This document shows positions 22,068 through 27,281 of a DNA stretch of 64,000 nt, piece by piece. The notes under the pieces are model-generated. The model saw only the letters and a list, made by a program, of their open reading frames with translations, had not been told where the DNA came from and did not search any database. The position numbers and the translations under genes are program-made. The stretch is from Kocuria rosea (GTDB taxonomy: Bacteria; Actinomycetota; Actinomycetes; Actinomycetales; Micrococcaceae): the NCBI RefSeq assembly GCF_006094695.1, contig NZ_CP035103.1, positions 620,001 to 684,000 on the forward strand. The letters are read 5' to 3'. Position 1 is the first letter of the stretch. Each line of letters begins with the position of its first letter.

Positions 22068-22198
22068 GCATCCTGGGTCAGTCCTGCAGCGCGAGCAGCG
22101 CCGTGCTGTCGGCCGCCGTGCCCGCCAGCTGCGGCGCCCACCCGTCGTCGCGCCCCTGTCGGTCGAGGGGTCGCCATCGGCGAGAACATGCCGCGCTG

Positions 22199-22291
22199 AA
22201 CGTCGGAACGCGACCCGCCGCGTGTGCTGAACGACGGAACGCGACCCGCCGCGTGTGCTGAGCGACGGAACGCGACCCGCCGCGTGCGCTC
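22199..22291. repeat. Three tandem copies of a 31-bp repeat
   Basis: Units at 22199-22229, 22230-22260 and 22261-22291 share GGAACGCGACCCGCCGCGTG and differ at only a few positions (third copy more diverged at both ends). They lie between the ends of two convergent genes, outside coding sequence. Role unknown; copy number is likely to vary between strains. Confidence 0.9.
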
Positions 22292-22335: not shown

Positions 22336-23267
22336 TCAGCGGGAGGCGCGCGAGGCCTCGACCGACGCCACGAACTCCCGGGCCAGCTCCACCAGCTCCT
22401 GGGTGCGCTCGATCTGCGGCATGTGCCCGGTGTCCGGGAAGACGTGCAGCCGGGCGCCGGGCAGGGCGGCGGCCGCGGCCTCGGCGTGGTGGGCCGGCAG
22501 CACGGCGTCGGCCTCGCCCCACACCACGAGCACGGGCAGGCCCGAGGCCCGCACCTTCTCCAGCAGGGCCCTCCGCCAGCCGGGCAGGACGCCGATCACC
22601 GGCAGCCCGATGCTCCGGTAGGTGCCCAGGAACGTGGCCCGGAAGTCCGGCTGGGCGCCCACCCGCGCCGCGTGCCGCAGCAGCTCCGGGGTGGCCAGGG
22701 CCGGGTCGAAGAAGCAGTTCTGGTTCGACCGCACCGCGGCGGCCCGCGCCAGCGGCCGGAACCGGCGGCCCACCACGGGCAGCCGGGACAGCCCCGCCCA
22801 CACCATGGGCAGGGGGGAGACGTTGGCCTCCCGGCCGAACCCGGCGCTGTTGGCGAGCAGCAGCCCCGCGACCCGCCCGGGGTGCTCGGCGGCCACGGTC
22901 ATGGCTACGGCGCCGCCCAGGGAGTTGCCCATGAGGTGCACCGGCCGCTGCTCGCCGAGCGCGTCGAGCACGCCGACCACGGCGCGGGCGAACGTCCCGA
23001 GCCCCGGCCGGTCCGCGCCGGCGGTGGTGAGCCCGAAGCCGGGGAGGTCCATGCTCAGCACGCAGTGGTCCCGCGCCAGCAGGTCGTGGGCGGCCGACCA
23101 GTCCTCGAGGCTCCGGCCGATGCCGTGCAGCAGCACGACCGGCGGCGCCTGCGCGGGCCCGGAGCGGCGGATGCGCACGGGCCGGCCGGCGACCTCCACC
23201 GTCGTCGTCGTGGCCTCCGGGGTGCCGGCGGGGGAGTCCGCGGCGGGGACGGGGGCGTGCCGGTCGG

Positions 23268-23271
<4 letters not shown>
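22336..23271 (-). CDS. Alpha/beta hydrolase (LipR/esterase-like), mymA-type operon
   Basis: 311 residues. The oxyanion segment is VVLLHGIGRS; the nucleophile elbow is MGNSLGG with Ser117; the acid falls in VVWGEADAVLPAHHA and the catalytic His in PDTGHMPQIER. Residues 1-35 are a disordered-looking Ala/Pro/Thr tail. No signal peptide. It overlaps the monooxygenase gene by 4 bp (ATGA) and follows it, so it probably hydrolyses the ester produced by the Baeyer-Villiger oxidation. Confidence 0.9.
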
Positions 23272-24815
<1,544 letters not shown>

Positions 24816-24847
24816 GCTTCCAGGATCGCCCGGCGCGCCCGCCAGGA

Positions 24848-24884
24848 CTTGACGCTACGCGACGATTGCTTGACCCTGGGCGAC
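24848..24884 (-). promoter_or_regulatory. Tandem AraC-regulator sites upstream of the monooxygenase operon
   Basis: Reading toward the monooxygenase, GTCGCCCAGGGTCAAG (24884-24869) and GTCGCGTAGCGTCAAG (24863-24848) form a direct repeat with 21-bp periodicity. They fit GTCGCSNNGSGTCAAS, also found twice before the SDR gene. The distal copy abuts the AraC start codon at 24885, so the regulator may also control itself. A possible -10, GATCCT, lies 20 bp beyond the proximal copy. Confidence 0.8.
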
Positions 24885-25910
24885 ATGACGGTCATCCGGT
24901 CCGCAGGTCTGCGCGGCTTCCGCGCCGCGGTCGCGGAGCTCGGCGGGAACGCCGAGGCCCTGGCCGACGCCGCCGGCCTGCCCCGGTCGGCCCTGGACAC
25001 CGACGACCTCCTGGTCCCCGAGCGGGCCGTCGCACGGGTGCTGGAGACCGCCGCCCGGGAGCTGGACTGCCCCGACCTGGGCCTGCGGGTCGCCGCCCGG
25101 CAGGACCCGGGCGTCCTCGGCCCCCTCGCGCTCGCCGCCCGCCACTCGGAGACGGTGCGCGACGCCCTCGAGTGCACCTCCCGCTACCTCTTCGTCCACG
25201 CCCCGTCCCTCGAGCTGGCGCTGGTGCCGGACCCCTACCGGGCCCGCGGGGTGACGGCGGTGCGCTACGGCGGCTCCGCCGCGACCGCCCGGGACCCCGG
25301 GCGCGGCAGCCCGCAGGGCACCGACCTGGGCCTGGGCCTGCTGCACCGGGCCCTGAGCTCCCTGGTGGGGGGCCGCTACGGGCTGCGCACGGTCGAGCTG
25401 GCCCACCGGCCGGCGGCGCCGCTGCGGGTCTACGAGGAGTTCTTCGGGGCACCCGTGCGCACCGGCCGCCCCGACGTCCTCCTGCGGATCCCCACCAGCA
25501 CGCTCGCCCGCCCGCTGCACGGGGACGCCGGGGTCCGGCAGGTGGCGCTCGCCTTCCTCGACACCCAGCTCCCCGGGCCCGGCTCCGCGTGGGCGCCCCG
25601 GGTCCGGGGCGTGCTGGTGCAGCTGCTCGGCACCGCGGCCCCGGAGATCGAGGCCGTGGCCCGGGTGCTGGACCTGCACCCCCGCACCCTGCAGCGCCGG
25701 CTCGCCGAGGAGGGCACCACCTTCGGCGCCGTCCTGGACGGGACCCGGCGCAGCGCGGCCCTGCGCTGGCTCACCACCACCGACGTCCCCCTCGGCCAGA
25801 TCGCCGGGCTCGTGGGGCTCTCGGAGTCCTCGGCGCTCACCCGGTGCGCCCGCCGCTGGTGGAGCGCCCCGCCGCGGGACGTCCGCCGCCGGGGCGTCCC
25901 CGCCGGCTGA
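24885..25910 (+). CDS. AraC family transcriptional regulator (VirS/OruR-like)
   Basis: 341 residues, the usual size for the subgroup with an N-terminal arabinose-binding-like domain (about 15-200: LADAAGLPRSALDTDD, GLRVAARQDPGVLGPLALAARHS cut, RALSSLVGGRYG). The C-terminal AraC DNA-binding region is EAVARVLDLHPRTLQRRLAEEG with LGQIAGLVGLSESSALTRCARRW. It is divergent from the monooxygenase-hydrolase operon and upstream of the SDR gene, and the same direct-repeat operator stands before both, so it likely activates them. No Shine-Dalgarno precedes the ATG, since an operator ends immediately before it. Confidence 0.92.
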   Translation: MTVIRSAGLRGFRAAVAELGGNAEALADAAGLPRSALDTDDLLVPERAVARVLETAARELDCPDLGLRVAARQDPGVLGPLALAARHSETVRDALECTSRYLFVHAPSLELALVPDPYRARGVTAVRYGGSAATARDPGRGSPQGTDLGLGLLHRALSSLVGGRYGLRTVELAHRPAAPLRVYEEFFGAPVRTGRPDVLLRIPTSTLARPLHGDAGVRQVALAFLDTQLPGPGSAWAPRVRGVLVQLLGTAAPEIEAVARVLDLHPRTLQRRLAEEGTTFGAVLDGTRRSAALRWLTTTDVPLGQIAGLVGLSESSALTRCARRWWSAPPRDVRRRGVPAG

Positions 25911-25914
25911 GGGT

Positions 25915-25951
25915 GTCGCCGCGCGTCAACTTCCTGTCGCGGTGGGTCAAG
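25915..25951 (+). promoter_or_regulatory. Tandem AraC-regulator sites upstream of the SDR gene
   Basis: GTCGCCGCGCGTCAAC (25915-25930) and GTCGCGGTGGGTCAAG (25936-25951) repeat with 21-bp spacing, in the same orientation relative to the downstream gene as the pair before the monooxygenase. The proximal edge is 70 bp from the SDR start; CACACT lies 20 bp beyond it, a possible -10. Confidence 0.8.
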
Positions 25952-26021
25952 CGGTGCCCGGTGCCCGCCCGCACACTGGACAGCAGGCCCCGATCCACGA
26001 CCCCGACCCCAGGAGCAGCCC

Positions 26022-26906
26022 GTGTCCCCGTCCGCACCCTTCCGCTTCGCCGGCGCCACCGCGGTGCTCACCGGCGCCGCCTCCGGCATCGGCGAGCAGC
26101 TGGCCCACGGCCTCGCCGCCCGCGGCACCCACCTGGTGCTCCTCGACCGGGACGCCGCGGGACTCGAGACCGTCGCCGGGGCGATCCGCGCGGGGCACCC
26201 GGACCTGCCGGTGCGCACGGTCGTGGCCGACCTCGCCGAGCTGTCCGCGCTGCCGGGCGTGGCCGAGCGGATCCGGGCCGAGCACCCGCGGATCGACCTG
26301 CTGGTCAACAACGCCGGGGTGGGCCTGGGCGGGACCTTCGAGCAGGTCTCCGCCGAGGAGTTCGACTGGCTCATGGACATCAACTTCCGGGCGCCGGTGG
26401 TGCTCACCCGCGAGCTGCTGCCCGCCCTGCTCGCCGCCCCCGGCAGCCACCTGGTCAACCTCTCCAGCCTGTTCGGCCTCATCGCCCCGCCCGGGCAGGT
26501 GGCGTACTCCGCGAGCAAGTACGCCCTGCGCGGGTTCTCCGAGGGCCTGCGCCACGAGCTGGCGGGCCGGGTGGGGGTCACCGTGGTGCACCCGGGCGGG
26601 GTCCGGACCAGGATCGCCGAGACCGCCCGCACCCCGGCCGGGGTGTCGGAGGAGCGGGCGCGGAAGGACCGGGAGGACTTCGCGGCGCTGCTCAGCTATC
26701 CGGCGGAGCGTGCGGCCGCCGACATCCTGGGGGCGGTGGAGCGGCGCCGGAACCGGCTGCTCGTGGCGCCCAGCGCCGTGCTGCCGGACCTCGTGGCGCG
26801 AGTCCTCCCGGGCTCCTACTGGCCGGTCCTGCGGCACGCGCCCCGGGTCCTGAAGCATGCGCCCCGGGTCCTGCGGCGTCTTCCCGGGCGGCGGCGCCGG
26901 GCCTAG
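26022..26906 (+). CDS. Short-chain dehydrogenase/reductase (SadH-like)
   Basis: 294 residues, classical SDR. The cofactor loop TGAASGIG is at 17-24, NNAGVG follows strand 4, the catalytic Ser is in NLSSLFG, and Tyr162/Lys166 are in YSASK. Asp in LLDRD after strand 2 suggests NAD(H). The C-terminus has an Arg-rich tail with repeated LKHAPRVLRR-like units. GTG start with AGGAG 6 nt upstream. In the presumed pathway it would oxidise an alcohol to the ketone used by the monooxygenase, or reduce an aldehyde; this is inferred from the mymA-like gene set. Confidence 0.9.
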   Translation: MSPSAPFRFAGATAVLTGAASGIGEQLAHGLAARGTHLVLLDRDAAGLETVAGAIRAGHPDLPVRTVVADLAELSALPGVAERIRAEHPRIDLLVNNAGVGLGGTFEQVSAEEFDWLMDINFRAPVVLTRELLPALLAAPGSHLVNLSSLFGLIAPPGQVAYSASKYALRGFSEGLRHELAGRVGVTVVHPGGVRTRIAETARTPAGVSEERARKDREDFAALLSYPAERAAADILGAVERRRNRLLVAPSAVLPDLVARVLPGSYWPVLRHAPRVLKHAPRVLRRLPGRRRRA

Positions 26907-26915
26907 GCTGAGCGC

Positions 26916-27281
26916 ATGACCAGCACCCTGTCCGCCGTCGTCGTCGACTGCCGCGATCCCGAGACCCTCGCCCGCTTCTGGTGCGCCGCCCTGGGCTACG
27001 TCGTCCACGCGGAGGCCGAGGGGTTCGTGGGCATCGTGCCCGCGGAGGGCAGCGGCCCGCACCTCGACTTCGTGGTCGTCCCCGAGCCCCGGACCGTCAA
27101 GAACCGGCTGCACCTCGACCTGCGCGCCGTGGACACCGACCGGGACTCCGAGGTCGCCCGCCTGGAGTCCATCGGCGCCCGCCGCGTGGACGTGGGCCAG
27201 GGGCCCGAGGTGACCTGGGTGGTGCTGGCCGACCCGGAGGGCAACGAGTTCTGCGTGCTCTCCGACCTCGAGGAGGACTGA
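26916..27281 (+). CDS. VOC (glyoxalase-like) family protein
   Basis: 121 residues, a single vicinal-oxygen-chelate module with two beta-alpha-beta-beta-beta halves: VVVDCRDPETLARFWCAALGY in the first and RLHLDLRAVDTDRD plus WVVLADPEGNEFCVL in the second. The PEGNEFC end is common to the glyoxalase-like 6 group. Metal ligands are only partly identifiable, so a bound substrate or resistance role cannot be claimed. It starts 9 bp after the SDR gene and may share its transcript. Confidence 0.88.
   Translation: MTSTLSAVVVDCRDPETLARFWCAALGYVVHAEAEGFVGIVPAEGSGPHLDFVVVPEPRTVKNRLHLDLRAVDTDRDSEVARLESIGARRVDVGQGPEVTWVVLADPEGNEFCVLSDLEED

What the first reader, a model, noticed from the sequence alone, without database searches (positions are those of the whole stretch)
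24848..25951. Four matching 16-bp direct-repeat operators define a compact AraC regulon
GTCGCSNNGSGTCAAS occurs twice upstream of the Baeyer-Villiger monooxygenase operon (24848-24863 and 24869-24884, minus orientation) and twice upstream of the SDR gene (25915-25930 and 25936-25951, plus). In both pairs the periodicity is exactly 21 bp (two helical turns), the copies point toward the target gene, and the AraC-family gene lies between the pairs. Two other coincidences support function: a possible -10 lies 20 bp beyond the proximal repeat in both promoters, and the distal repeat of the first pair abuts the AraC start codon. Inference: one regulator activates both arms and may restrain itself.
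Basis: partly seen in the sequence, partly recalled or inferred. Interest (0 to 1): 0.72.

Follow-up and report, generated by a model that had tools for sequence, protein, structure and literature searches.

The report
Twin operators of a VirS-like regulator
Two matching pairs of short DNA repeats flank a regulator gene in a Kocuria genome and very probably let that one protein switch two neighbouring enzyme operons together; the repeats resemble known AraC-family binding sites, so this is a well-supported but fairly ordinary genetic switch.

Summary
The four repeats are real, correctly placed and not chance. In the 3.95 Mb genome the tandem pair occurs only twice at up to 2 mismatches, both beside the genome's one detected Arabinose_bd/AraC-type gene. 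That regulator is related to M. tuberculosis VirS (8rcx, E 1e-47). To its left lie a Baeyer-Villiger-type monooxygenase (FMO) and a hydrolase, to its right an SDR. The same 6 of 27 congeneric genomes hold regulator and both pairs. Of 65 loci, 56 keep the left pair, with a -10-like hexamer 21 nt (52) or 22 nt (4) beyond; the right pair is in 8 of 8 loci with the SDR on the right and, at up to 2 mismatches, in 0 of 57 others. More widely, 129 of 179 non-redundant VirS-like genes carry a tandem TGTC-N8-TCAA pair at their 5' end, but only 2 of 23 in the 40-50% identity group. Half-sites and period match published AraC-family sites (CdhR, ArgR). Best reading: one ligand-controlled regulator, two co-regulated arms, its own promoter inside the left operator. 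Binding, sign, ligand and autoregulation are inferred. New member of a known kind.

The parts
22336..23271 (-). alpha/beta hydrolase, second gene of the left operon (ATGA overlap with the FMO)
   Evidence: Pfam PF00561 E 8.8e-30; GxSxG at residue 115; overlap read
23268..24815 (-). FMO-like, type I Baeyer-Villiger-type monooxygenase, first gene of the left operon
   Evidence: Pfam PF00743; fingerprint FGGRVVHPQFWP at residue 178; PDB matches led by cyclohexanone monooxygenase, E 3e-35
24822..24827 (-). possible -10 (GATCCT) of the FMO operon, 21 nt after the operator core, 6 nt before the ATG
   Evidence: NANNNT hexamer at 21 nt in 52 of 56 loci and at 22 nt in 4
24848..24863 (-). left operator, FMO-proximal half-site
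   Evidence: pair conserved
24869..24884 (-). left operator, FMO-distal half-site, directly before the regulator start codon
   Evidence: pair conserved
24849..24877 (+). possible leaderless promoter of the regulator inside the left operator: TTGACG, 17 nt, GACCCT
   Evidence: read; hexamers across 56 loci; TTGAC is the complement of the operator core, so weak evidence
24885..25910 (+). VirS-like AraC-family regulator (341 aa)
   Evidence: Arabinose_bd E 1.3e-38 and HTH_18 E 2.1e-12; PDB 8rcx VirS E 1e-47
25915..25930 (+). right operator, SDR-distal half-site
25936..25951 (+). right operator, SDR-proximal half-site
25972..25977 (+). possible -10 (CACACT) of the SDR gene, 21 nt after the operator core
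   Evidence: CACACT or CAGACT follows the right pair in all 8 loci listed with a pair at 0-1 mismatch
26022..26906 (+). short-chain dehydrogenase/reductase (SDR)
   Evidence: PF00106 E 6.6e-45; TGxxxGxG and YxxxK motifs
26916..27281 (+). glyoxalase-like protein, possibly in the SDR transcript
   Evidence: PF18029 E 2.3e-32; adjacent on the same strand; on the SDR side in L004, L005, L007 and L129

Best explanation
The repeats are operators of the VirS-like regulator encoded between them. Each 16-bp half-site (TGTCGC-N6-TCAA) would be read by the HTH domain of one subunit; two subunits side by side, 21 bp apart on one face of the DNA, make one operator. In both arms the proximal half-site ends 20-21 nt before a -10 hexamer, so it reaches the -35 region, the usual place for a class II AraC-family activator. 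The FMO-hydrolase and SDR promoters would thus depend on the regulator and be switched together by one ligand, perhaps a ketone, secondary alcohol or lipid. SDR (alcohol to ketone), monooxygenase (ketone to ester) and hydrolase (ester to acid and alcohol) form a plausible pathway. The regulator's own possible promoter lies inside the left operator, so occupancy should also set its level. Shown: repeats, spacing, uniqueness in the genome, conservation, association of the right pair with the SDR, conserved -10 position. Inferred: binding, sign, ligand, pathway, autoregulation.
For: Only two pairs and one detected Arabinose_bd protein in the genome. Regulator and both pairs in the same 6 of 27 congeneric genomes. 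Left pair in 56 of 65 loci, -10 hexamer at 21 nt in 52 of 56 and 22 nt in 4. Right pair in 8 of 8 loci with the SDR on the right, 0 of 57 others at up to 2 mismatches. In a scan of 394 genomes of the class, 10 of 10 exact pair matches lie by a VirS-like gene. In L259 pair and monooxygenase both lie on the other side of the regulator, so the pair follows the target. Published sites of the same half-site and period: CdhR (PMC5806209, passages), ArgR box (PMC10963909, passages).
Against: No binding or expression data. 2 of 23 VirS-like genes at 40-50% identity have the pair. The 8 right-pair loci come from two lineages (Kocuria, Saccharothrix), so they are not 8 independent events. L056 has a 3-mismatch right pair without the SDR. 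In G144 an SDR orthologue near a regulator-FMO locus has no pair. Four of six FMO-SDR operons found have neither regulator nor pair in the 14-15 kb fetched. CdhR was called a class I activator by its authors. VirS's ligand lowers DNA binding in a reporter assay, which fits a simple activator poorly.
Confidence: 0.82

Rival explanations
1. Same regulator and operators, but the unliganded protein mainly represses all three promoters by covering the -35 regions and the regulator's own promoter; ligand releases it.
For: The left operator covers the regulator's possible promoter. Alpibectir lowers VirS binding to its operator region in a reporter assay while virS and mymA rise (PMC13234193, passages and section 9).
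Against: A virS loss-of-function mutant is slightly less susceptible to ethionamide and does not respond to alpibectir (section 9), which suggests a positive role. Position at the -35 with a fixed 21-22 nt to the -10 fits activation.
Confidence: 0.25
2. The repeats are bound by a different regulator, and the AraC-type gene is only a neighbour.
For: No binding test exists; 50 of 179 VirS-like genes lack the pair at their 5' end.
Against: Exact pairs in 394 genomes lie by a VirS-like gene in 10 of 10 cases; the pair is there in 129 of 179 genes spread over a wide range of identity; tandem direct repeats at this period are an AraC-family trait.
Confidence: 0.05
3. Chance repeats in GC-rich DNA.
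For: The single 16-mer at 2 mismatches is no commoner than in shuffles.
Against: Pair expectation 8e-6 per genome and conservation across genera.
Confidence: 0.01

Closest known systems
VirS-mymA regulon of Mycobacterium tuberculosis
   Same: Related regulator (8rcx, E 1e-47) next to a monooxygenase operon; VirS controls the mymA operon and its own gene rises with it (PMC13234193, passages and section 9). That mymA's neighbours include a hydrolase and an SDR is recalled.
   Different: Not an orthologue by the evidence here; two separate arms instead of one 7-gene operon. In the passages and section read the VirS operator is given as the virS-mymA intergenic region, without mapped repeats.
CdhR and relatives GbdR, SouR, ArgR of Pseudomonas aeruginosa
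   Same: CdhR half-sites are GGTCGC direct repeats with a 15-bp spacer (21-bp period), footprinted, divergent target operon, own gene discussed as inhibited (PMC5806209, passages); ARG box TGTCGCN6GNAA in tandem 5 bp apart (PMC10963909, passages).
   Different: Different hosts and targets; CdhR is called class I by its authors, whereas the position here suggests class II; the 3' part TCAA differs from GNAA at one place.
GliR (PA3027) of Pseudomonas aeruginosa
   Same: The NCBIfam GliR model matches the C-terminal half of the regulator (E 9.3e-23, 81 bits, below its cut-off of 570); two sites per promoter, one overlapping the -35 (PMC8151288, passages).
   Different: Its motifs YYGGCGHTDTYSGMC and GGAYAWCGCCG are not this repeat.

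Membership tests
AraC/XylS-family regulator with Arabinose_bd domain | N-terminal Arabinose_bd domain and C-terminal AraC-type HTH above Pfam cut-offs | tested here: met
   133.4 and 47.6 bits against cut-offs 27.6 and 33.6
VirS-mymA system | regulator of the VirS type | tested here: met
   8rcx E 1e-47 over nearly the full length; related, not shown to be orthologous
VirS-mymA system | divergent monooxygenase operon beside the regulator | tested here: met
VirS-mymA system | single seven-gene operon under one promoter/operator | tested here: not met
   FMO-hydrolase on one side and SDR on the other; operon described in PMC13234193. It works like it but is not filed as a member.
GTCGC direct-repeat operators (ARG box / CdhR type) | GTCGC half-sites in direct repeat at a 21-bp period | tested here: met
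   both pairs; literature
GTCGC direct-repeat operators (ARG box / CdhR type) | binding of the regulator | not testable with these tools
   needs EMSA or footprint
Class II AraC-type activation | proximal half-site overlaps the -35 at a fixed distance from the -10 (feature recalled) | tested here: met
   21 nt in 52 and 22 nt in 4 of 56 loci; promoter itself not mapped
Class II AraC-type activation | regulator-dependent rise in transcription | not testable with these tools
   needs expression data
Type I Baeyer-Villiger monooxygenase | FxGxxxHxxxW(P/D) fingerprint (recalled) and two Rossmann motifs | tested here: met
   FGGRVVHPQFWP at 178, GAGLSG at 27, GSGATA at 203

The most novel reading that the evidence does not exclude
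The tandem TGTC-N8-TCAA pair at a 21-bp period is the shared operator of a large actinobacterial VirS-like subfamily (129 of 179 non-redundant genes sampled), with base 5 differing between subclades (mostly G where HTH residue 267 is Arg, mostly C where it is Lys). It would predict regulons across the class and possibly the operator of VirS itself, the target of the clinical candidate alpibectir.
Probability: 0.55. Interest if true: 0.5.

Novelty: new member of a known kind. Interest (0 to 1): 0.36.

Why it matters
It turns a sequence-only guess into a testable two-arm regulon and gives a search pattern that finds VirS-like regulators and their target operons across actinobacteria. Many of these regulators sit beside Baeyer-Villiger-type monooxygenases, enzymes of use in biocatalysis and, in M. 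tuberculosis, activators of a prodrug. It also offers a natural case in which one enzyme, the SDR, is tied to the same regulator either by lying behind the monooxygenase or by owning a second operator.

Tried and rejected
Residue-base code. In the first set (93 genes with a pair of 107 examined, not made non-redundant) 69 of 69 genes with TGTCG in both half-sites have Arg at HTH residue 267 and 13 of 13 with TGTCC in both have Lys; 11 genes have mixed half-sites. In 81 fresh non-redundant genes, 45 of them with a pair, Lys had CC in 7 of 7 but Arg had GG in only 23 of 38. The tree needs only 2 Arg/Lys changes and gives 2 independent pairs, sign test p = 1. Rejected as independent evidence of binding; kept as a prediction.

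Counts of the single 16-mer at 2 mismatches: uninformative. VirS operator repeats in print: none seen in the passages and section of PMC13234193 or in the listings; subscription papers are mostly not held, so this is no proof of absence. PMC8041468 (passages): no usable AraC motif in the text. PMC4266540 (passages): another mycobacterial AraC-type protein with a palindromic motif, not this one. PMC9044949 (passages): VirS iModulon rises in acid and lipid media; no motif seen. The five relatives compared with VirS are diverged from it, so VirS's own intergenic region was not examined. Structure prediction and the search for homologous proteins were not run.

Full report
What is there. The regulator gene (24885-25910, +) is flanked by two operator-like pairs. 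The left pair (24848-24884, minus) lies between the regulator and a divergent monooxygenase-hydrolase operon; the right pair (25915-25951, plus) lies between the regulator's stop and an SDR gene. Pfam gives Arabinose_bd plus HTH_18 for the regulator, FMO-like, alpha/beta hydrolase, adh_short and Glyoxalase_6 for the others. The monooxygenase has the Baeyer-Villiger fingerprint and the SDR its motifs. Of the 4 PDB sequences matched by the regulator, the best is M. tuberculosis VirS (8rcx, E 1e-47).

Chance. The exact core pair is expected 8e-6 times in a genome of this size and is found twice; the pattern came from the same copies, so conservation is the better test. Genome-wide only these two pairs appear at up to 2 mismatches, under the strict or the relaxed pattern, and one Arabinose_bd protein was found. 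At exactly 3 mismatches the relaxed pattern gives 21 further hits; the backward control gives 9 hits at up to 3. Four of the 21 are identical copies of one sequence.

Genus. Of 27 congeneric genomes, 6 have the regulator at E <= 1e-20 and the same 6 have both pairs at 0-1 mismatches; the other matches of that scan have 3 mismatches, and the backward control also gave hits in several genomes.

Other genera. The search for related loci gave 63 loci; with the window and G023 (L129) this makes 65. The left pair is there at up to 2 mismatches in 56 of 65 (46 exact). In 51 of the 56 it abuts the regulator's matched start; the exceptions are L007, L050, L055, L060, L061. A monooxygenase lies directly beyond it in 53 of the 56, not in L050, L060, L061. 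The nine loci without it are L026, L051, L053, L056, L058, L059, L063 (partial match), L064, L065; six of them are 27-46% identical to the window protein. In the 56, a NANNNT hexamer lies 21 nt after the operator core in 52 and 22 nt in 4; offsets 14-20 and 23-26 have none, 27 has 1, 29 has 20 (these fall near the start codon). An ATG follows 6-7 nt after the hexamer in 54 of 56, so the monooxygenase transcripts are probably leaderless.

The second arm. The right pair (0-1 mismatch) is present in 8 of 8 loci with the SDR orthologue on the right (window, L004-L007, L129, and Saccharothrix L024 and L033), each followed by CACACT or CAGACT, and in 0 of 57 others at up to 2 mismatches; L056 has one with 3. 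The eight are two lineages, not eight events. SDR orthologues at E <= 1e-90 were found in 13 of 394 genomes of the class, with only the 6 best candidates per genome scored. Of the 12 besides the window: 6 sit directly behind a monooxygenase on the same strand and have no pair of their own in the fetched stretch; of these, G360 and G297 have regulator and pair ahead of the monooxygenase, while G237, G416, G121 and G222 show neither in 14-15 kb. G104 has its own degenerate pair followed by CAGACT, about 11 kb from a regulator-monooxygenase locus with a weaker pair. G144 lies near a regulator-monooxygenase-pair locus, but its SDR has no pair. Four (G259, G334, G064, G207) show no partner in the fetched stretch. 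In L259 monooxygenase and pair both lie to the right of the regulator. G195 (L133) has one pair before a monooxygenase and one before an SDR and hydrolase, with the regulator between.

Blind scan. The pattern TGTCGYN5RTCAAN5TGTCGYN5RTCAA at up to 2 mismatches gave 38 matches in 33 of 394 genomes, against 7 for the backward control. By tblastn on the fetched flanks (1.5-2 kb a side), 22 of 38 lie by a VirS-like gene, the window's two included: 10 of 10 exact, 4 of 5 with one mismatch, 8 of 23 with two; 16 do not.

Subfamily. Of 221 VirS-like genes, 179 remain after removing those over 98% identical, and 129 have the relaxed pair (14 or more of 16 bases) between 200 nt upstream and 50 nt inside. 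Random 250-nt windows of the same loci reach this in 71 of 2988, true pairs included. By identity to the window gene: 4 of 10 at 20-30%, 53 of 72 at 30-40%, 2 of 23 at 40-50%, 17 of 20 at 50-60%, 47 of 48 at 60-70%, 6 of 6 above 80%. The 40-50% group is a real exception and may use another site. A monooxygenase (over 40% identical) is in the fetched stretch of 83 of the 129 and 13 of the 50 others; stretches differ in length. Part of the sample was fetched because it had the pair, which favours the count. A one-residue code was tried and is not independently supported.

Mechanism. The proximal 16-mer ends 20 bp before the -10 in both arms and so reaches the -35, the layout of class II activation (recalled). 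The regulator's own possible promoter (TTGACG, 17 nt, GACCCT) lies within the left operator; TTGAC is the complement of the operator core, so this is weak evidence for autoregulation. Published relatives fit: CdhR binds GGTCGC direct repeats with a 15-bp spacer, needs both half-sites, and is discussed as inhibiting its own gene, but is called class I (PMC5806209, passages); the ARG box has the same period (PMC10963909, passages); direct-repeat binding is said to be restricted to few regulators, most of them AraC-family (PMC9723621, passages). For VirS, the ligand alpibectir lowers DNA binding in a reporter assay while virS and mymA rise, and a virS mutant does not respond (PMC13234193, passages and section 9), so a repressor or dual role stays open.

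Verdict. It is a new member of a known kind: an AraC-family regulator with 21-bp-period direct-repeat operators and two co-regulated arms.

Noticed in passing
window 22195-22290: Three head-to-tail copies of a 34-nt repeat at 31-nt spacing (91-100% identical), just past the hydrolase stop; function unknown.
   Followed up: no
G000:C1 316224, 407439, 2759940, 3103013 (outside the window): Four identical 37-mers among the 3-mismatch hits; perhaps a multi-copy mobile element.
   Followed up: no
VirS-like genes 40-50% identical to the window's, e.g. L194, L256, L276-L278: Only 2 of 23 genes in this group carry the tandem pair at their 5' end; they may use another operator.
   Followed up: partly
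L133 6262-6298 and 8945-8981: A second natural locus with two pairs: one before a monooxygenase, one before an SDR and hydrolase, regulator between.
   Followed up: partly
window 25683-25685 (residue 267 of the regulator, in the HTH): Arg or Lys here goes with G or C at base 5 of the half-site in most genes, but there are too few independent changes to prove a contact.
   Followed up: yes
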